A DNA stretch of 64,000 nucleotides, taken from the NCBI GenBank assembly GCA_021234155.1, contig JAJEKV010000075.1, positions 2,048,001 to 2,112,000 on the forward strand. Reading direction: 5' to 3'. The translations under genes were made by a program, and so were the position numbers. The notes beneath the pieces were generated by a model that was not told the DNA's origin, did no database searches, and saw nothing but the letters and a program-made list of their open reading frames with translations. The first letter of the stretch is position 1. The number at the start of each line of letters is the position of its first letter. This document shows positions 4,525-64,000 of this stretch, one piece after another. This stretch comes from Isoetes taiwanensis. Taxonomy: Eukaryota > Streptophyta > Lycopodiopsida > Isoetales > Isoetaceae.

Positions 4525-4556
4525 CTAGAAAGGGCCCGGCGGCTGTAGGGCCCTTT
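4525..4556 (-). terminator. Helitron 3' terminal hairpin and CTAG
   Basis: A perfect 9-bp stem, AAAGGGCCC (4529-4537) with GGGCCCTTT (4548-4556), encloses a 10-nt loop. CTAG (4525-4528) follows directly on the minus strand. A hairpin plus CTRR is the defining 3' end of Helitrons, where it stops rolling-circle transfer. Confidence 0.93.
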
Positions 4557-4559
4557 TGC

Positions 4560-4830
4560 TCCTTTCCTCGGCTTCGGCCGGCCTCTCGGCCCGGCCTTCG
4601 CCTCGGTTTGGGCCCACCCATGTGCCCTATCTCCTATCTCTTCCCTAAAGGGCCCGGCCTGACGGCGACGGCCGGGCCCTTTTCTCTCGCATCCGTTCCT
4701 CGGCTTGGCCCCTCCGGGGCCTCGCCTCGGGTTGGGTCGACCCACGTGACCTTTTCTGTTACACCCTTCCTCGGCTTGGCTCCTCTGGGGCCTCGCCTCG
4801 GTTTGGAGGCCGGGCCCCCTCTTTTTTTTA
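4560..4830. repeat. GC-rich tandem repeats in Helitron 3' tail
   Basis: Three imperfect units carry TCCTCGGCTT...CCTCGCCTCGG (near 4563, 4696 and 4768). Their GC content is far above that of the flanks. Open frames on both strands here are a by-product of the composition and show no protein domain. Confidence 0.75.
4647..4682 (-). repeat. Second, internal Helitron-like hairpin
   Basis: A perfect 12-bp stem, AAAGGGCCCGGC (4647-4658) with GCCGGGCCCTTT (4671-4682), encloses a 12-nt loop. Nine base pairs are identical to the terminal hairpin about 120 bp away. It is followed by AGGG rather than CTRR, so it is not a canonical end. It looks like a duplicated or superseded terminator. Confidence 0.8.
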
Positions 4831-6346
4831 TCTCATTGTTACTCACATCTATTACTACTTTCAAAGTATCACGCATTGGGAGCTTAGTACATCTACTATG
4901 AATTTTAAAGGCTACTCACATATACTACACCCCAGAAGACTTGACATTCTTATTTGTATTTGTTAGCAATTCCAACATATACATCCATGAGGACCCATAG
5001 CACTTCTTAATTGCTGAATATTTTATTCACATGAGTGCCTCTTTATATACAACATTTGGAGTGTATATTCGGTGGTCTTTTAAGCAATGCACCACGGCGT
5101 GATGTCTCTTCGACCCGCGATTTTGACTCCGTTTTGTGAAGTGCATCTTGAGAGGGACGTAAAAAGTTGTCCATCGCGTGAAAACTAAGCGGCAAGTAAA
5201 ATAACGGTCTCCAAAGATTGGCCTTAGGACTTATTGATCGTCATTGAGAATGCTAAGCGGATTGGGTATTGTCTCCTTGTGAAGGGTATGTGTGAATCGG
5301 ATAGGCGTCAAGTTGATCTTTGGCAATAGGACTGGGGTGCCTTTGAATTAGCGTGACTATCTCCGCTTGTGGGATTCTCTGCGTTAACGTGTGTAATGCG
5401 TGGCGTGTTCCGTTGCATAGGCCTCCTTGTGGATACATGTTTCTAAGTAGCATTACTATTGCTCCCACCTTGATATTGAGCTTGTGAGGTGGCGGTCCGG
5501 AAGAAGCGTGAGGTGATTGATGAATTCAATCGGAAAATTCTGATGTCCTCTTCATCTTCCATGTTGAGAGTATCAATACCAATATATGTGTGCAAGTCTC
5601 CATGCAATCTTTGCAAAGTCTTGTCACTAAGGTTTAGTGTATCTTCATTTTTGGAGAGGCGGTATAGATTTCTCGAATAAAGCGTTCCATGTTAGGCTGG
5701 GTCTATACTTGTTCCAAACACCTCATCGATTATATTATTTTTCGCAATACATTTGCTTGGTAGCTCAACAACGTCTTCGGGGCGTGGGCTCGTCATTCAT
5801 CGTTCTTAGTTCCCAAGCTTTAGCAAGTATTGATCCATTCTTTTTCATCTTATTGGACCGCGTAAGTTCGTTGTCAACTTAAAAGTCTTGAAGTGTTTCC
5901 ATAGGGGGTTGCTCTTGACACATTTTGCAAGAATCTCCATCTTCTTGGCTCGTTTGATTACTGGCAATTGTTGCCTGAAATCACCGCCAGCTAATACTAT
6001 CATTCCTCCAAATGGTCTAGGGTCTCACTTGAATTTCCTTCAAAGGCAAAGTATCTATGGGCGTGAGTCGTCGGAATGTGTCATACTTAATTCATCCCAC
6101 ACCAAAAGTGTTGCTTTTCTTATTCTATCTGCCTGTTTGCTCGTGGCACGCAGATCGGACGTTGCTTCAGATGTCAGGTTTAGCGGGAGCTTGAACGTAG
6201 AGTGTACTGTATGGGCTCCCTTGAGCAAAAGGCTCGCTATGCCTGTCCATGCAACTGCAATAACACCGAGCTCTCTTCCTCTTAACATGCTGATAATTGT
6301 ATTGAAGACGAACGTTTTTCCAGAACCGCCGGGACCGTCCACGTTT

Positions 6347-6667
6347 GGGTAAAAGCATGTTAGGGTGTACCACTTTTGGAACCTGCAAAAGTACATACAC
6401 TAGGTACTTTAGAACTGGGTACTTTCTCATTTTTCTTTTCATTAAAACTAGTACAAAAGTTCAAAATAAAAGTCAAGGACGTGTTAATATTCAAAGTTAT
6501 GATAAATATAATGCTATCGAAGACCAAAATATATATAAAAGTTCTAAAATGTACCTTTTATTGACATATTACACAGGTACCCAGTACCTAGTCCTGAGTA
6601 CCTTTTTAGGTACTTTTTTGGTCACTAAATAATACTTTTTAAGGGACACCCTAACATGCTTTTACCC
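6347..6667. mobile_element. 321-bp TIR element inside Helitron helicase
   Basis: Perfect 22-bp terminal inverted repeats (6347-6368 and 6646-6667), beginning GGGTAAAAGCATG, are flanked by GTTT on both sides (6343-6346 and 6668-6671). There is no internal gene. The motif GGTAC(TTT) is repeated in inverted orientation in both subterminal regions. Removing the element plus one GTTT brings the interrupted frame into register through Walker A, which confirms both ends. A 4-bp duplication with GGGTAA ends does not match the commonest plant MITE superfamilies. Confidence 0.88.
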
Positions 6668-9569
6668 GTTTATGCATAAACTTGATGGTTGCACCCCGTC
6701 AATTGCATAAAGGATAGCATCAGCTATTTCTTTTTGGTCTGGAGTTAATTTTGCATATCGCTCATCCCCTTTAGCCTTTTCAAAGGCCACGTCGAGTGGC
6801 TCGCCAACTGTTGTGTTATGGTGCAGAGTCAGCTTTGGTTCTGGAAGTTGATTCAATTGACAACTTGTCCCATTTGCAAGAAAAATTTCATTCATGGATA
6901 GCAATGCTGCATTGTATGCATCTTCCTCTGGCATGTCACGGGCATAATCCTCTGCTAAATGACGTTTGAACTTCTCCCACAGGTTCAGTGGATCCGAGGG
7001 AGGTCCATATATCTTGATAAAAGCGAGCGTTTGGGCGCAATTGGGTAGGCATCTGAAAAGTAATTGCATCGTCAAGCGTTCTCTCCCAATCTGCATCATC
7101 TGCCAATAGCCCGAGTTGCTTTGCCGTCTCGTGAAATGTAGCGCATTGCTTTCCATCGACATTTTTCATGTCTTCGAAGCTAGTGATCCCTCTTCTGTGT
7201 AGCAGTAAAAGGCGCAAGTAATATCTCTCCATGTCCTTTGGGCTCACATTATACATCCTCGAAATCAGCTTATATTTGCCCTCTCTTATTTTCCAAATGC
7301 CCTCGCCCCTTATGAATGTATAATGGTGGGGGATTTCCGGATATGTGTATTGTCGAGCATTCACGTCTATTTTATTTAGCTCGAACCAAGCGGTGAGCAT
7401 CGTGTGTTTTGTTGCAGCACGCTCCAAGGCAATCCGTTCCTGGCCTTCTTCATAGTATACCATTTGTGCATTAGGTAAGTGAGCGGGTAACCTATGCGAT
7501 TATGTGGGAGGTGTGGTGCATTTTGTAACCATCGTTCTCCACATTGCTTCAGTGCGTAAATGTATCTCGCATCGAGGAATCTTGTATCTCATCCCAATTA
7601 TATGTGGGCGTGTTTTGTATCACGGGTGAGCGGTCAACTTAATGCTTGCTTTCGATGCGTGGCCTTTATGAATATACTTGAAAATATATTTTATGCTTGC
7701 AATACTAAAACAACATTCCACATTTATATGGCGGTCGTTTTACGCAAGAGGTAGGGATTGTATGGGACAACCATCTTTGTTGTCTATCGTTCGATTCCCT
7801 TGCTCATATTGTATGCCCGGTAGCGTCGTCACGTACTCACGGATATCCATTCTCTTTGATTGATGTGCTTTGTAAAGGCTTTGGAAAACCTTTGGAACAT
7901 TCCATCATTCCATTTTTTCATTTAACTTCATGCACGGGGCCACATGGTCCATGCACCATGCATTTCTTCACAATTTAAATTTACCTTCGGGGTTCTCAAT
8001 GGAGTGCGTATCTACTCGCACTTGTGATCTTATCAATATCATAAGCTATCGTATTTTATCTGCTTGTTCCATTATTAGGAGCATATGGCGATGTGGCAAA
8101 CCTAAACTTTTGATATTGATTGTATATGTATAGGCTTTAACTTTTCGAAGAATATCTGGATTCTAAAATATCATAAAGGATTGCCATCAACCGTGTGGTA
8201 TACACGGCGACCGCGTCTGGTCTATCCTCACGGTGATTGGCCCTTTTCTAGGTTGTCTTTTATCTCGGGCCAATTCCGTTGCATGTAATTATAACTAATA
8301 TATCGGCCTTCCCAAATCTTGACCCGATTGCCATAGAGTCTTGATAGTTTTGTTCCATGGCTTCGTTTGCCACCAATGAGCGATGGCGGTAAGATGATCA
8401 ATCTCCCGACCCGGTGCCCCGTGCCTGCCTCATGGTTCACGTGGTCGATGAGGCCATCGTACATCTCATTTCAATTTCTTTTGGTTGAATCTGCGTAGAA
8501 GTTCAAGGTGTTAGCCTCTATCCTTTACGTAGGCATCGACTATGAACTTTGTTGTGTCAATCTCCCCGCAATAGGGGATTGAAAGCAAACTTAAGGTCGT
8601 CGGCATATACGTGTTCGTCAATTGTGCTTAGTCTATACAAATAATCTTTTAACATGGACACATTTTGCCTCGATCGGCTTGAAGAAGCGCCTACTTGATT
8701 TCTCATGTTCATTTCCCATCCTTTGTGGCGGAGCGGTAACAATGGGTAAGTCGAACATCGATGTAAGATTTAGTGATGGCAATATTTCTTAAGCCGCCGC
8801 CTCTTTGATGGATGCATATATCTCTCCATTGAAAGGTGGCTCGCCATCCGGATTTACAAAGATCCGCAGCTGACTTCATTAGCGTATGCGGGATTATATC
8901 TTAAAGTCCAGCCTGTTCTATTGTCATTGAAATACATCCTTATTACGCATGCTCATTTGATCGGCGTGCATTGTCTTCCACCTCGTGCATCATATGCAAA
9001 GCTTGCGCCAAATGGGTTTACTGATCCTTATTTGTAAGTCAAGTTGCCTCATAAGGTCCATGTCACACTCTACATTGTGCACGTTTTGTGCACGTTCTTC
9101 GTTCGCGTACTCCATGTCTAGGATATACAATTGAGCATATTTGGTGGTACATTATCGCCGGGGTGAAGCGGGCCCATCTATGGTACATCCGGGTAGTGGA
9201 TCTTAAAGCAATATGGGCCCGTGTGCTTTGAAATGTTGTATGTCTGCTCCAAATGATACAAATGCCAATGCATTATTGTAAATCCTGATATGGGACTTGA
9301 ACTCTTTGCTTTTTGGATGATCTCCAATGAGCAGCTGGTATAGCAAGTGTGGCATTGCTGTCAAAGGGGGGAGGCTAACTTTGCCATCATAACAACACTT
9401 TGTATCATCGTTCTTAAATGCTAGAGCATGGCGGTGCTTGCACTCGGTCCGATTCTCCCATGATGATGGGCCTCGGCGTGCATTGAATGGTCAGTTCGGG
9501 CTATTCTATAAGTTGAAGGATTATCTCGGTTTGCCCGTCTTTGTTGAGCCTCTACAGCCAACCTTTCAA

Positions 9570-10262
9570 CATGCTCCTCCTCTGTCTCCCCCTGTCGTGC
9601 CATAGACCTGCTGGCCGCCATTGCCTCTGTCTGGTGGGCTAGCCTAACAGCACGCTCCTCGTCTGTCTCTCCCTGCCGTGCCATGAACCTCTTTGGGCTG
9701 CCACTTGTCTCTGGCGTGGTGGGCCCGACCCTAAAGACTGCAGCTCCTCCTCGTCTCTCCACGTCGGTCGGCGGACTGCTTTGACGCCACTCGCTTCTTC
9801 TGTCTGGTGGGCCAGCCTAGCAGCCCGCTCCTCCTCTGTTTCCCCCTGTCGTGCCGTGGATCTGGCGGGCCCCGCACCTCTGCGTGATGGGCCAGCCTGG
9901 CAGTTCCTCCCTCTGTTTCCCCTGTCGTTACGCGTGGACTGGCGGGTACGCCATTGCCTGGTGGTCTGGTCGCCCGACCTGTAACCGGCTCCTCCTCTGT
10001 TTCCCATAACTTTAGTGTGGGCTGGACTGGCTTTGGCCCTTACTGCCTCTGCATGGTGGGTCGACCCTGCGACCGCGGCTCCTCCTCTGTTTCCCCCTGT
10101 CGTGCCGTGGACCTGCTGGCTGCCACTTCCTCTGCGTGGTGGGCCAGCCTAGCAGCACGCTCCTCCTCTGTTTCCCCAATGGTGCCATGGGCCTGGCTGT
10201 GGCTGCCACTTCTTCACGCATGGTGGGTCAACCTAACGACCGCGGCTCCTCCTCTGTTTTTG
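9570..10262 (-). repeat. Coding tandem repeats in RepHel N-terminus
   Basis: Units of about 81-90 bp begin with TCCTCCTCTGTTTCCCC on the plus strand (near 9574, 9829, 9905, 9991, 10080, 10161 and 10247). On the minus strand they encode about 27 residues of the form ARQGETEEERAARLAHQ, rich in Glu and Arg and probably helical. Copy-to-copy slippage probably caused some of the frameshifts. Open frames on the plus strand here are shadows. Confidence 0.8.
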
Positions 10263-10544
10263 TCTATTCTTTATTTCGCCCTTCTATTTCTTTAAGCCCC
10301 CCGACTCTGTCCAACCTTGCTTGTCGCTCCTCTGGTGTCTCTGTTGCGAGCAATCGTTGTCTTCTATTTTGGTATCTTTCTCTATCCCGGGCGCGCCTAG
10401 CTTCCTGCTCCTCTAATGTCTCCTCTTTTCGTTTGCGTGGCATTGTTTTATTTTTAGCTTTTTTTATCGACTATATGTTCTGCACAAACAATATATAAAA
10501 GCGTGGTTAGAATAGCGGTTTTGGAGCATTTTAAAAAGTTTTTA

Positions 10545-11110
10545 ACCAAAAGTTTCTATACCTGGATATGACACCTATCCATGATTATTGAAAACACTGC
10601 AAAATATCAAGCCTATACTTTCTCTTTTGGGCCTCAAAGCCTGTTATTGCATACTCTAAAAAAGTTTCTATTTCTCAGCATTCCATCTATCTATGATCAT
10701 TCAAAACACTTCAAAAGATCAAGAAATGCTTATTTTAACTACAAACCTAAACACTACTGGGGTTCCCCAAAACATTACAAAACATTTATTCTAATTACAC
10801 ACCTAAACTTTCTTTTTTGGGCGTCAACCGCTATCAGGGCACTATTCTAGAAAAGTTTCTATTTCTGGACATATCACCTATTTATGATCATTGAAACCAC
10901 TGTAAAATATCAAGGGAACACTACAAAATCTTATAAAACACTTATTCTAACAGCATGCTTAAACTTTCTATTTTGGGTCTCAAGCAAGCTTCTATTTTTA
11001 GACATTCCATCTATCCATGATGATTCAAAACACTGCAAAACATCAGGAAATGTTTATGCTAACTACATGCTAAAACTTTTTATTTTGGGCCTTAAGCGCT
11101 AAAACTTTCT
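10545..11110. repeat. Tandem repeats upstream of RepHel
   Basis: About four imperfect units of 115-190 bp start near 10549, 10665, 10852 and 10988. Each holds GTTTCTATTTCT, CATCTATCCATGAT, AAAACACTGCAAAA and CTTTCTTTTTTGGGC variants. They lie between the RepHel start and the Helitron 5' end, so they belong to its upstream region. Confidence 0.7.
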
Positions 11111-11384
11111 ACTTTGGGGCCCAGCCACTCTCAGGACCGCACTAACCGTTAGTTGTTAGCGGGACGGGCGTTCCAGAACTAAAGTGTCAAATGGAGCACC
11201 TCTAGGTGTCTTTCTGCTATATTCCAACACTTGGAAATGCTCTCCACACTTTTGGTTCAACCAACGCGTTCCCTCCTACTATCCCGCAGGACTTGTGAAC
11301 GGCACCCCACACTTTCTTATTAAAAAGTAGGGGGCCCCCCCCCACCACCTTAACTATTTGTGAAGTTCCAATTATTTAACAAAT

Positions 11385-11452
11385 TGATGCTTAGCCTAGT
11401 GGTAAGGATGTAGGGCTCGGGGGGCAATGAGCAGGGTTCGAATCCCCCACAA
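11385..11452 (+). repeat. tRNA-like (SINE-head) sequence
   Basis: An A-box match, TTAGCCTAGTGGTAAGG (11391-11407), and a B-box match, GGGTTCGAATCCCCC (11434-11448), have tRNA-like spacing. No acceptor stem closes around them, so this is a tRNA-derived SINE head or internal pol III promoter rather than a working tRNA. It lies within the Helitron on the opposite strand to RepHel. Confidence 0.7.
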
Positions 11453-11487
11453 AACAGGAAAATTTTTGAAAAGGGTTAAGAATATTT

Positions 11488-11718
11488 TAGAAGATTCCAG
11501 AAGCTTCTAGAAGATTCCAGAAGCCTTATAGGAGTGTCTAGAATGTTATAGAACTTCCTGGAAGATTCCAGAAGCCTCCAGAGCGCTCTAGAAGGTCCAC
11601 TAAACTTGGGAGCTTTTGAGGAGCTTCTAGAACATTCTAGGAGCTTCTAGAATGTTATAGAACTTCCTAGAAGATTCCAGAAGCCTCTAAAAGGCTCTAG
11701 AAGCTTCTAGAACTTTCA
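11488..11718. promoter_or_regulatory. Heat-shock-element-like array
   Basis: Seven uninterrupted alternating units GAA-nn-TTC run from 11490 to 11522 with exact 5-bp spacing. Further runs of three to four units follow at about 11545-11570 and 11620-11718 (TTCTAGAA, GAAGATTCCAGAAG). Alternating nGAAn/nTTCn is the binding site for heat-shock transcription factors. It sits about 1 kb upstream of the RepHel start, near the Helitron 5' end. Function is inferred; the array could also be a chance minisatellite or a SINE body. Confidence 0.55.
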
Positions 11719-11786
11719 AGGATCTGGCGACCAAGGGCCCAGATCGCGCCACGTGGCGCCTCCTTTACCGTCGATGGGGGTGGAGT

Positions 11787-11820
11787 TACTCACTCACTCA
11801 CTCACTCACTAACTCACTAA
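11787..11820. repeat. (CACT)n microsatellite near Helitron 5' end
   Basis: A short run of CACT/CACTAA repeats lies about 30 bp inside the Helitron 5' terminus. Confidence 0.8.
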
Positions 11821-11848
11821 CGGACACTATTTCTTTATTATATATAGA

Positions 11849-38689: not shown

Positions 38690-38755
38690 GAATGTTCTTA
38701 GAAATGAATGTTCTAGAATGAATGTTCTAGAATGCATGAATGTTCTAGAATATCC
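38690..38755. repeat. TTCTAGAA-containing short repeats
   Basis: AATGTTCTAGAATG recurs three times (38708-38750). Each unit resembles a three-site heat-shock element but the run is not continuous. Similar units appear at about 40495 and 40590. Confidence 0.6.
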
Positions 38756-38759
38756 TGAT

Positions 38760-41260
38760 GCTCCTCTATGGTGATACCTTTGGAATTGGTAGTAGCAATG
38801 TGTGTAAGGTCCACATGGGTGATACTTTAGTTCTGTGAGCCACCCCTCATGTGTGATAATTTAAATTGTTAGTAGGTATGAGTCACCCTCATGTATGATA
38901 CTTTCAAATTGGTAGTGGGTGGAGTCAACTTTTCATGGGTGAAACTTTGGAATTGGTAGTAGGTGTGAGTAAGTTCCCACCGGGCAAGAGGGGCAAAGAA
39001 GCTCCCTCATAGATTTACAAAATGAATGTTGAAACTTTTGCAAAATAACAAAATAGGATGTTCTAGATAGTTCCCAGAAAGTTCTATTTCTAGATGCCTC
39101 ATGGTTGAGCAACCCCGCCTAAGAATAGAAATTTCTTTTGCCAAAATAGAATGTTCTTACTTTGGAATTGGTAGTAGGGGTAGGTGGGGAGTAGGTCATA
39201 GGGACAAATTGGTAGTAAATATGAGCCAGCCTTCCATAGTGATACTTTTGCAAGATTGATAGTAGATGTGTGAGTAGGGTCCTAATGGGGGATACTTTTA
39301 TAGATTGGTAGTAGATCCGGTTCCTCCCTCACAAGGATACTTTCAAATTGGTAGTAGATATGAGTAAGCTCCCTCATGTATGATACTTTTGGAATCACAC
39401 AAACTGGCAATAAGATTGGAATTTTGTATGATACTTTGAATTTAGTACCAAATTGGTAGTAAATGTGAGAATGCTGAGGCAATAACATGGATATGAATGT
39501 TGAGTAACATGGATATGAATGTTAAGCCATCATGATATTTCCCCATTTGGAATTTGGAATTGGCAGATGTGAGCCAACTTCATCATGAGACTTTGGAATT
39601 GGTAGTAGGTGTTGACCAAATGATCATACTTAGTAGTGTGTTGGTAATAGATGTGTGTAGGCTCACATAAGATACTTTGAAGTTCTAGCGCATGTGACTC
39701 AAATCTCATGTGTGATTCTTTAGAACCGTAGTAGGTGTGAGTCAGCTCCCCGTGGGATTCACCTTGATCCAGAGAACCCATGAGAGTTCAACGGAACCAT
39801 TTTATGCCGATACTTAGGGTTAGAGGTGTTTTTAGGCACTAATTTGGAGCAATATCTATACAATGTAGGGTCAAATTGCCTTTTAAAATTATGCATACAA
39901 GGGGGTTTTTGTTACCTTCAACGCGAGATGCCAATACCCCCTTATGTATAAGTGCATTCGAGCTTCCTCATGGGTGATACTTTGAATTGCGGTAGGTGTG
40001 AGTCACCTTTACCGCCGTAGATGTCCAAACCGGGCGAGGCCACCGAGCCGAATAGTGCAAAAGAGTAGTAAGTATAGAAGGTCCCTGTGGGAGTAACATA
40101 GAGGCTGCTTTTATGCAACCGAGGCGCAGGGCCGATCAAAGGTCGAGGCCGAAAGGAAATAGTGCCAAAGATATCCAAATCAAGGCGCAGGCCTTGGGTC
40201 GAAGCCGAAATAATGCTAAGGGGTGCCCTTTCAGAGGTGAATAAAGTGCAAAAGAGTAGTAAGTATAAGATCCCTATAGATGGGGGTAACATAATAAGCG
40301 TATTCTTTTATGCAAACCGAGGTGAGGCTCCCTATCCGAGGAATAGTGCAAAAGAAAAGGGTTCGCCAGGTAATTACCTAAAAAAGAAAAGTTATCCCAA
40401 ACTCCGTATAGAATGTTCTACAATGTTTCAAATACTCATGGTAAGCACCCCTGAAAATAGAAATTTTTGAAACTTTCCAAAAGAAGTCAAAATAGAATGT
40501 TCTAGAATGTTTTAAATGTTCACTGGATAAGTTTCTGGCCTAAAAATAGAAAGTTTTTGGAAACATTGCAAAGGCCAAAATAGAATGTTGCAAGATTGTT
40601 ATATATGCCCAGATGCTCATCCAAGAATATAAAGTTTTTAAAGTATGAGTGTTTCATGCGGGTGATGTTTGGAGTTGGTAGTATGGAATTTTGAAGGTAG
40701 TAACATGCATATAGGTCCGGGCAGGCACTTCATAACTTTGAAATTATGGTAGGTGTGACCAGCTCCCCCAATAGGCAACACTTTAGAATTGGCAATAGGT
40801 AGCAGAAGTCCTCAGATGACAAATGGATATTGAGTAACATGGATATGGCGATATGGGTGATTATGATGCTTTAGAATTGGTAGTAGGTGTGAACTAAGCT
40901 TCCCAGGTGATACTTTGGAATTGATAGTAGATGTGAGTAAGCTCTAATGGGGAAAGAAAAGTGCTTTGGAATCTACTCATGGTGGGTAGTAGATATGACT
41001 CCCAACATGATTCTTTAGATTGGTAATATGTGGCGCAAGCTTCATAAAATTGTCTTGGTAGTAGGTGTGTGAGTAAGCTTCCAAATGGATGATACTTTGG
41101 AATTGATAGTAGGTGGTGTTAGTAGTAAATGTGTATAAGATCCACATGGATGATACTTTTAAATTGTAGTAGGTATGAGTCACTCATCCGGTGATAACCT
41201 TCCAATTGGTAGTAGGTGAGTCAATTCTTCATGGGTGATACTTCGAAGTTTTTTTGAAGA
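38760..41260. repeat. Degenerate minisatellite, about 2.5 kb
   Basis: The phrase GATACTTTGGAATTGGTAGTAGGTGTGAGT followed by AGCTCC or a close variant recurs dozens of times at roughly 40-65 bp spacing. It is interrupted by a GC-richer block at 40010-40380 (GAGGCGCAGG, GGCCGAGGC-like) and by TTCTAGAATG units. Short open frames on the minus strand (Tyr-rich HIYYQF) are translations of the repeat, not genes. Confidence 0.85.
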
Positions 41261-62034: not shown

Positions 62035-62237
62035 ATTTCTAGGGAATGCTACTTTTCGAAGTTTTGAAGTTGAGATTATCATGATTATTTAGGAGATTTA
62101 TTTCTTACTAACATCAATTCTTATGGATTAATAAGAATTGAGGAGTTATTTCTAGGGAATGCTACTTTTCGAAGTTTTGAAGTTGAGATTATCATGATTA
62201 TTTAGGAGATTTATTTCTTACTAACATCAATTCTTTG
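62035..62237. repeat. Tandem duplication at LINE 5' junction
   Basis: About 85 bp (GGGAATGCTACTTTTCGAAG to TTTCTTACTAACATCAATTC) occurs at about 62040-62124 and 62154-62235. The second unit abuts the first reverse-transcriptase codons. Confidence 0.85.
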
Positions 62238-64000
62238 GTAGAGGAGTTCGTCAGGGTTGCCCCTTGGCTCCATTGCTTTTTACAATAGTGGCAGAGGTGC
62301 TTTCACAATTATTTTCTAGTGCTGCTGAGGATGATGTGATCAGGGGCCTTCCTATGGAAAATGGCTCTCAAGAAATTATTAATCAGTATGCAGATGATAC
62401 CTTTCTATTTTTGAAAGCAGATGCTGATAATCTCCAAAATGCAAAGCTTCTGCTTGACACATTTTCCTTAGCCTCTGGAGTTTTGGTCGGTTGGCAAAAG
62501 TGTCCTGCTTTGTGGACTCTAGATGATGAAGTCCCACCATGTGTTCTTGCTTACCCCTGGAAGGTGTTGCCTCATGGGAAGGCAACAAAGCTTCTTGGTA
62601 TCCCAGTGGGTATTCATGTTTCAACTTCTGATGCTTGGGATGTTATAATCGAGGGGTTGCGGAGGCACCTTTTTTGGTGGGATACGGCTAAGCTATCTAT
62701 GCCTGGAAGGGTAACAGTTGCTAAGCATGTCTTAAGCAACACACATGTCTATATGGCTTCTGCCATTCTTGCTTCCCACTCAAAGTTTCAGGAGATTGTA
62801 GGTGTTGTTAGAAACTTTATCTAGGGTGGAAATGAAGCAGGGGTAGTGGTGAAGGTTGCATGGTCTAAGTGTATAAAACCTAAGTCTGCTGGAGGTTTGG
62901 GCATGACAGATTTCCATTTGCAGAGTAAGGTTATGATCTCAAAATTCATTTGGCGGCTTCTCGTAGGTAAGGATGATTCTCCTGGTTACTACGGCTTATT
63001 GCACGTGCTCTTACCCATCAGTATCCCTTTTGGTAAAGTCACACTCAAACCTGTTCTTCCATGGAGTTTATTTTATGAGTTGCGGCCTTATCATAATGCT
63101 TCTCCATTCTTAAAGGGATTGTTAGACTCCTAGCACACAGTCAAAACTTTATTTCACATCAGTCCAACTGCTTGTGTACGATTGATCGCACCTTGTTGAT
63201 GGATCCCTCTCGGTAGACAATCAACCACTTTGCTTTTACAAAGGCACCCATTGACTCAAAGACGTTGGAAAAGTCTTTGGAATCTTAACTATTGCAGCAT
63301 GGTATGACTCGAGCCGATTCTTGACATGGGAGGCTTTTCGATTAAAGTTTCTATTGGGGCGATGGGATAGAGTTCTGTGGCAAAAAGTTGCTGATTTTCT
63401 ACAGCCTATTCTGCCACGCCAAGAAGATATTTTGGTATGGGTTTGTCATGAAGAAATTAAGGAGTGCAATCTTGTGAACTCTATGTATCGGGTTGTTGCT
63501 TGATAATCGATATTCTTCCTCCGCCTAATAAGTGGTCTCTTCAACTTCCTCCTCTTCAATGGCGTAAGGTGTGGTCTTGGGCATGGGACAAGCTACTTCA
63601 TCCTAAAGTGGCGCTTCTTTGGTGGCGATTCTTCATAGGTGTCTGCGGGTTAACATGCTTGTCCATAAGTTTAACCCTAGAATATCAAATCAGTGTCCAG
63701 TGTGCAAGCGTGGATCTGAGACCATTGAGCATTGCTTTTTCATGTGTGCACACCTTAGACAGGTATGGGACTGGTTGTATTCCCTTTTTTCAGGTTTCAT
63801 TAACAAGTCAACAACTGCTTTTGGCAATTTACCCAAGTACCTGGACAGAGTTACAAGGCCAGGCTTTTCATCTAGCAGCAGGATGGTTGCTTTGGACTAT
63901 CTGGAAAAGACGAAGATTGGTAATCTTCAAAGGTCTGGATGTGGCAGATAATCGTATTCTTCAAGAAGCTCAAGGTTACATTGTAAAGTCGTATCATTGT
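62236..64000 (+). mobile_element. L1-like LINE, 3' half, runs off the window
   Basis: The element starts abruptly within the reverse transcriptase at GRGVRQGCPLAPLLFTIVAE (about 62241). Then come QYADDTFLFLKAD (the catalytic YADD, about 62385), GVLVGWQK, KATKLLGIPVG, LSMPGRVTVAKHVL, a stop where Trp is expected (NFI-stop-GG, 62822), KVAWSKCIKPKSAGGLGM, FHLQSKVMISKFIW, NASPFLKGLLDS, then WDRVLWQKVADF and the zinc-binding zf-RVT domain (NQCPVCKRGSETIEHCFFMC, about 63688). The 5' half, including endonuclease, is missing. Several stops and shifts. The fragments at 17 kb and 44 kb belong to the same family; the one at 37 kb is related. Confidence 0.9.

What the first reader, a model, noticed from the sequence alone, without database searches (positions are those of the whole stretch)
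11488..11718. Heat-shock-element array near the Helitron 5' end
Seven consecutive, perfectly spaced GAA/TTC units plus several shorter runs lie about 1 kb upstream of the transposase start. Heat-shock factors bind alternating nGAAn units, and the Arabidopsis Copia element ONSEN is heat-activated through such sites. A heat-responsive Helitron would be new to me. If so, Helitrons of this family could seed heat-responsive sites across the genome.
Basis: partly seen in the sequence, partly recalled or inferred. Interest (0 to 1): 0.75.

Follow-up and report, generated by a model that had tools for sequence, protein, structure and literature searches.

The report
Heat-shock motif array in a Helitron
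A jumping-gene family in a plant genome that is probably a quillwort carries, just inside one end, a dense run of the DNA signal that heat-shock factors recognise; it probably lets heat switch the element on, but this is predicted from sequence alone, and heat-responsive elements of this type are already known from a worm and from wheat.

Summary
Window 11490-11522 has seven perfectly spaced alternating GAA/TTC units, with runs of 3, 3, 3 and 4 nearby. The array lies 131-361 nt inside the 5' end of a decayed Helitron on the minus strand (4525-11848), about 1.05 kb upstream of its putative transposase start.

It is a family trait. Of 58 genomic copies picked only by their terminal 24 bp, 50 have at least 3 perfect units, 40 at least 4, 25 at least 5 (shuffles: 0.9%, 0.03%, 0.02%). 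The unit reads TTCTAGAAnn, with only nn free. Genome-wide, six perfect units occur at 1,424 (partly overlapping) places, against 1 for the reversed pattern. In a non-random sample of 20 regions, 17 belong to a second repeat family that shares the array and an adjacent tRNA-like block.

Best reading: heat-shock factors bind the array and drive Helitron transcription in heat. No expression or binding data were available, and GAA/TTC bases of the Helitron diverge about as fast as DNA outside the array, so selection is not shown.

Novelty is limited: heat-induced Helitrons with such sites are published for C. elegans (2019) and wheat (2026). New are the density, the sharing by two element types, and the probable lycophyte host.

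The parts
4525..11848 (-). decayed Helitron; 5' TC at 11847-11848, 3' CTAG at 4525-4528
   Evidence: A|TC at 5' end and CTAG|T at 3' end; similarity of other copies stops near 11848; many broken reading frames
11488..11718 (.). heat-shock-element-like array, period 10, unit TTCTAGAAnn
11490..11522 (.). seven contiguous perfect alternating GAA/TTC units, starting 20 nt after the tRNA-like block
   Evidence: a 7-unit run at the same distance from that block in L002, L004, L008, L011 and L013
11700..11717 (.). four-unit perfect run nearest the Helitron terminus
11348..11470 (+). conserved tRNA-like block (box-B match GGTTCGAATCC at 11435; only an imperfect box A near 11393), antisense to the transposase; shared with the TA-flanked family
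   Evidence: ARAGORN finds no tRNA
11748..11757 (.). palindromic G-box GCCACGTGGC between array and terminus
   Evidence: exact in 40 of 58 copies
9206..10443 (-). N-terminal part of putative transposase, ATG at 10443, with about 81-bp coding repeats, frame broken
6058..6399 (-). PIF1-like helicase fragment of the transposase
   Evidence: Pfam PF05970, E 5.7e-26
4525..4556 (-). Helitron 3' end: hairpin (arms 4529-4537 / 4548-4556) plus CTAG

Best explanation
The array is a cluster of strong heat-shock elements in the promoter/leader of a Helitron family. Shown: sequence, position, presence in most sampled copies, HSE-like unit, presence of canonical heat-shock factors in the genome. Inferred: in heat, trimers of host heat-shock factor bind the tandem units, open the otherwise silenced 5' end and drive RepHel transcription on the minus strand, so that autonomous members transpose in heat and short members carry the array to new places. 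Inferred more weakly: inserted copies can make neighbouring genes heat-responsive.
For: 50 of 58 copies chosen blind to the array carry at least 3 perfect units and 40 of 58 at least 4; one per 95% cluster: 43 and 34 of 51. Published plant yardstick: 3 adjacent nGAAn = moderate, 4 or more = strongest (PMC5059998, passages). Unit columns: TTCTAGAA matched at 80-96%, the two nn at 50-56%. Of 10 loci that keep part of the leader, 9 hold a run of at least 5 units. Genome-wide 1,424 six-unit places against 1 for the reversed pattern. Array CG observed/expected 0.10 against 0.98 for the adjacent 130 nt (partly built in, since GAA/TTC cores hold no CG). HSF DNA-binding domains present: 16 matches, SFVRQLNTY read in 3 of 3 fetched. 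Functional precedents in C. elegans and wheat.
Against: No expression, ChIP or DAP data. In the Helitron set GAA/TTC positions do not diverge more slowly than DNA outside the array (outside/core interval 0.90-1.44 at 80% identity, 0.85-1.47 at 90%). In my sample the same array is commoner in a TA-flanked repeat in which I saw no coding evidence and tested none. None of 14 sampled HSP20 loci (of 76 matches) showed a perfect run of at least 3 units upstream of the start used, and their imperfect best scores were like random 500-bp pieces, so the perfect-unit yardstick is not calibrated on native heat genes of this species. 8 of 58 copies lack a 3-unit run in nt 60-420. The array keeps 6 CHG sites, unlike the ONSEN promoter, reported free of CG and CHG (PMC3907296, passages). 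It is about 1 kb from the ATG and no TSS is known.
Confidence: 0.5

Rival explanations
1. Neutral minisatellite: a 10-bp palindromic unit that spread by slippage, unequal exchange and transposition, matching heat-shock elements by accident; not used by any factor.
For: In the Helitron set core bases diverge at the rate of outside DNA and nn faster than both, as unit exchange would give; the array is also in a second repeat family; longest run varies from 1 to 10 units among 58 copies.
Against: Eight of ten columns fit the HSE form while only the two positions that HSF tolerates vary; strict 5-bp phasing in most copies; reversed-pattern control 1 against 1,424; in the TA-flanked set at 90% identity cores do diverge more slowly than outside (interval 1.12-3.13, one of four sets tested).
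Confidence: 0.28
2. Structural role in rolling-circle transposition: the palindromic array folds in single-stranded 5'-end DNA and helps Rep recognition or replication control.
For: Single-strand DNA fold z -4.25 and RNA fold z -4.77, 0 of 200 shuffles as good; 56 of 58 copies have a run of at least 3 units within 870 nt of the terminus.
Against: Distance from terminus is not fixed (nearest run 5th-95th percentile 113-476 nt); 8 of 58 copies lack a 3-unit run in nt 60-420; the array is also in an element without recognised Helitron ends.
Confidence: 0.1
3. The array is a passenger of a captured module (tRNA-like block plus array) that serves another purpose, such as Pol III or small-RNA transcription, in both element types.
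For: tRNA-like block adjoins the array in both families; box-B match at 11435; weak miRNA-precursor-like Rfam matches, all below gathering scores.
Against: No tRNA found; no strict box A; box B pattern in only 23 of 58 copies.
Confidence: 0.12

Closest known systems
Helitron1_CE / HelitronY families of Caenorhabditis (HSEs inside Helitrons)
   Same: Helitrons carrying multiple tandem HSEs; reported HSF-1 binding and heat induction of the Rep-helicase mRNA; 61.4% of C. elegans HSEs reported inside Helitrons (PMC6927752, outline, first part of Results and one section; PMC6765114, passages).
   Different: Different kingdom; here binding and induction are untested, and in my sample of 20 regions most six-unit arrays lie in a second repeat without recognised Helitron ends.
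Xuan-Feng Helitron family of wheat
   Same: Plant Helitron with predicted nTTCnnGAAn in its promoter; reported heat-responsive promoter-GUS and mobilisation under heat plus reduced methylation (PMC13286980, passages).
   Different: The passages read describe a predicted heat response element, not an array; sequence relation to this family not tested.
ONSEN / ATCOPIA78
   Same: Heat response element of adjacent nGAAn units in the promoter (PMC3907296 and PMC5059998, passages).
   Different: LTR retrotransposon with a 4-unit HRE and a CG/CHG-free promoter; here a rolling-circle element with up to 10 contiguous units among the 58 copies and 6 CHG sites in the window array.

Membership tests
Helitron | 5' TC inserted after A | tested here: met
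   window A|TC; by loose patterns, A|TC near the terminus in 26 of 58 copies and CTAG just outside in 25 of 58, two counted in both, nine in neither
Helitron | 3' CTRR preceded by a short hairpin | tested here: met
   CTAG 4525-4528 with hairpin 4529-4556
Helitron | head-to-tail tandem copies (3' CTAG abutting 5' end) | tested here: met
   25 of 58 5' ends have CTAG within a few nt; in 22 of these it ends a CCTTTCTAG/CCTTTTCTAG/CCCTTCTAG-type stretch
Helitron | RepHel protein: helicase | tested here: met
   PIF1 PF05970 E 5.7e-26
Helitron | RepHel protein: HUH Rep domain | tested here: inconclusive
   no Rep match among the 10 ORFs scanned, 9 of them Helitron fragments; the frame is broken and not all fragments were scanned
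Heat-responsive TE (ONSEN / Helitron1_CE type) | at least 3-4 adjacent nGAAn units | tested here: met
   7 units here; 50/58 copies with at least 3, 40/58 with at least 4
Heat-responsive TE (ONSEN / Helitron1_CE type) | element lies in the promoter of the transposition gene | tested here: inconclusive
   upstream by 1,045 nt of a putative ATG; TSS unknown
Heat-responsive TE (ONSEN / Helitron1_CE type) | HSF binding | not testable with these tools
   no binding data
Heat-responsive TE (ONSEN / Helitron1_CE type) | heat-induced transcript | not testable with these tools
   no expression data

The most novel reading that the evidence does not exclude
In this plant, probably the aquatic lycophyte Isoetes taiwanensis, two kinds of mobile element share one promoter-like cassette (HSE array plus antisense tRNA-like block). 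They have spread it to roughly a thousand places with six or more perfect heat-shock units, so that most of the strongest HSF-binding capacity of the genome is transposon-borne and either rewires or sponges the heat response.
Probability: 0.3. Interest if true: 0.72.

Novelty: new member of a known kind. Interest (0 to 1): 0.5.

Why it matters
If the array binds heat-shock factor, it extends HSE-bearing Helitrons, already published for a nematode and wheat, to what is probably a lycophyte. It would also show the same heat cassette shared by two element types at roughly a thousand sites. That makes it directly testable whether transposon-borne sites rewire, or titrate, a plant heat response.

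Tried and rejected
SINE reading: the tRNA-like block first suggested a tRNA-derived SINE. Rejected because similarity ends at the Helitron terminus 11848, many 5' ends abut Helitron-type 3' ends, and the block has a conserved stretch of about 40 nt upstream. ARAGORN found no tRNA. microRNA precursors: the Rfam matches were all below gathering scores and fit any inverted repeat.

Selection test: labelled core positions only where the query copy was perfect, which favours 'conserved' cores, so I discard their ratios. labels by repeat register, counts only positions labelled alike in both copies, and gives outside/core intervals of 0.90-1.44 and 0.85-1.47 (Helitron set, 80% and 90% identity) and 0.95-1.68 and 1.12-3.13 (TA-flanked set): one of four excludes 1. 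The AGA/TCT and TAG/CTA control labels had the wrong spacing and gave almost no data.

HSP20 promoters as a positive control (14 of 76 matches) failed: starts were uncertain for most; no perfect run of at least 3 units lay upstream of the starts used, and imperfect scores (7-10 of 12) were like those of random pieces. TTCTAGAA repeats at 38690-38738 have a 14-bp period and give no run of 4 or more.

Literature searches: 'Helitron'+'heat shock element' 15 papers; 'Helitron'+'HSF'+'heat stress'+'plant' 26, 20 listed; three of four heat/Helitron terms 36, 15 listed; 'Isoetes'+'Helitron' 2; Helitron minisatellites 18, 8 listed; 'heat shock element'+'transposable element'+'lycophyte' 0; 'Helitron'+'heat shock'+'Selaginella' 4. 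By title none of those listed concerns this family or a lycophyte Helitron; subscription papers are mostly not held.

Full report
Observation. The window holds seven contiguous, strictly alternating GAA/TTC units at 5-bp steps at 11490-11522, four at 11700-11717 and three 3-unit runs between them; elsewhere in the 64 kb there are four 3-unit runs and none longer. Shuffles of the window (50) or of the array (2,000) never exceed 4 units. TRF sees a period-10 array at 11488-11712.

Anatomy. The element is a Helitron on the minus strand. Its 5' end is at 11848 (A|TC) and its 3' end is CTAG at 4525-4528 with a hairpin. A PIF1 helicase fragment lies at 6058-6399; no Rep domain was matched among the ORFs scanned. 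The putative transposase ATG is at 10443. The frames are broken, so this copy looks dead. Seen from the 5' end, the order is terminus, G-box GCCACGTGGC, HSE array (131-361 nt), antisense tRNA-like block, leader, transposase. Other copies lose similarity near the same terminus. By loose patterns, 25 of 58 exact termini directly follow a CTAG, in 22 of them after a CCTTT(T)CTAG-like stretch, which fits head-to-tail rolling-circle products; 26 show A|TC; two show both and nine neither.

Family test. The terminal 24-bp pattern occurs 58 times exactly and 313 times with up to 3 mismatches, against 2 for the reversed pattern. All 58 exact copies were read; the 255 others were not. In nt 60-420 from the terminus, 50 of 58 have a run of at least 3 perfect units, 40 at least 4, 25 at least 5 and 8 at least 7; shuffles of the same stretches give 0.93%, 0.03%, 0.02% and 0. 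Taking one copy per 95% cluster, 43, 34 and 20 of 51 reach 3, 4 and 5 units; within 870 nt, 56 of 58 copies have at least one 3-unit run. Ten fetched loci keep part of the leader towards the transposase: nine have a run of at least 5 units and one (L020) has no 3-unit run. In five of them (L002, L004, L008, L011, L013) a 7-unit run starts about 20 nt after the tRNA-like block, as in the window, so the 7-unit run itself is inherited. Some of these loci hold more than one copy.

Unit. A wrap-around alignment with equal penalties at all ten columns (guide TAGAAGATTC, 56 blocks from the 58 copies) shows the TTCTAGAA columns matched at 80-96% and the two remaining columns at 50-56%. That fits the classical heat-shock element (the optimum is recalled, not from a call). 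Published plant classes call three adjacent nGAAn moderate and four or more strongest (PMC5059998, passages).

Genome-wide. The six-unit pattern, which is its own reverse complement, occurs at 1,424 places, against 1 for the same pattern read backwards. Longer arrays count more than once: the first 50 listed places make about 40 distinct arrays by my reading of the list, so roughly a thousand arrays; runs that start with TTC and have just six units are not counted. I fetched 20 regions around places among the first listed, chosen by hand, three of them on one contig. Seventeen resemble one another and form a second repeat of about 1.3 kb; its left or right end, mostly beside TA repeats, was recognised in 15 of the 17, not in L030 and L038. 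L025 bears this Helitron's terminus. L027 and L034 are unassigned, L027 with weak similarity to the helicase region. The TA-flanked repeat has 675 exact left ends, against 0 for the reversed pattern. It shares the array and the tRNA-like block with the Helitron. The sample is not random, so the genome-wide split is only indicative.

Function. For HSF action: motif form, spacing, retention in most sampled copies, and canonical HSF DNA-binding domains in the genome (16 matches; SFVRQLNTY read in 3 of 3 fetched, followed after the intron by GFRKV in two and GFRKI in one). CG is depleted in the array (observed/expected 0.10, against 0.98 in the adjacent 130 nt), but the cores cannot hold CG, so this is partly built in, and 6 CHG sites remain. 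Against or missing: between Helitron copies, at 80% identity, cores differ at 0.080 per site, DNA outside the array at 0.089, the TA spacer at 0.046 and nn at 0.186; the outside/core interval 0.90-1.44 includes 1, and so does that at 90% (0.85-1.47). In the TA-flanked set the intervals are 0.95-1.68 and 1.12-3.13, so one of four suggests slower cores. Selection on the cores is therefore not shown for the Helitron. Fast nn change can come from exchange between units. None of 14 HSP20 loci (of 76 matches) showed a perfect run upstream of the start used, and imperfect scores were like random pieces. The array folds well as single strand (z -4.25 DNA, -4.77 RNA), as any palindromic array would.

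Host. The assembly size (1,658,258,908 bases, 1,110 contigs) and a contig of 17,402,236 bases match the published Isoetes taiwanensis assembly (1,658.30 Mb, scaffold N50 17.40 Mb, 204 scaffolds plus 909 contigs; PMC8566536, passages). The intron inside the HSF domain and the HSP20 sequences fit a plant (recalled). The species is an inference. The word Helitron has 0 occurrences in the main text of that paper and of the I. sinensis genome paper.

Known work. HSEs in Helitrons, HSF-1 binding and heat induction of the Helitron transposase are published for C. elegans (PMC6765114, passages; PMC6927752, abstract and outline, part 1 of 4 of Results and one section). A heat-responsive plant Helitron with nTTCnnGAAn is published for wheat (PMC13286980, passages). 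A meta-analysis of stress-linked plant elements (PMC8725346, passages) reports HSF motifs in Gypsy and Copia elements; the passages shown report none in Helitrons. The finding is therefore a new member of a known kind, with unusually dense arrays and a cassette shared by two element types.

Verdict. Observation confirmed. Heat-responsive promoter is the most likely reading (0.5), with a neutral minisatellite as the main rival (0.28). Interest 0.5.

Noticed in passing
L021-L024, L026, L028-L033, L035-L040: A second repeat of about 1.3 kb, mostly beside TA repeats, with 675 exact left ends in the genome, carries the same HSE array and tRNA-like block plus a long degenerate GATTC-rich stretch; its class is unassigned.
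   Followed up: partly
window 11348-11470: tRNA-like block (box-B match GGTTCGAATCC, no strict box A) antisense to the transposase with about 40 nt of conserved upstream sequence, shared by both repeat families; might be a captured tRNA gene with its 5' flank.
   Followed up: partly
window 11748-11757: Palindromic G-box GCCACGTGGC, exact in 40 of 58 copies, between the array and the terminus; a possible bZIP site beside the HSE array.
   Followed up: partly
window 9573-10259: About 81-bp tandem repeats within the transposase N-terminal region encode a repeated ETEEERAARLA-like peptide.
   Followed up: no
window 38690-38738 and 40408-40589: TTCTAGAA-containing or similar repeats with 14-bp and 84-bp periods that do not form HSE runs of 4 or more.
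   Followed up: partly
window 62225-62821: Reading frame with RQGCPLAPLLF and YADDT motifs, looking like a non-LTR reverse transcriptase (recalled motif, not searched).
   Followed up: no
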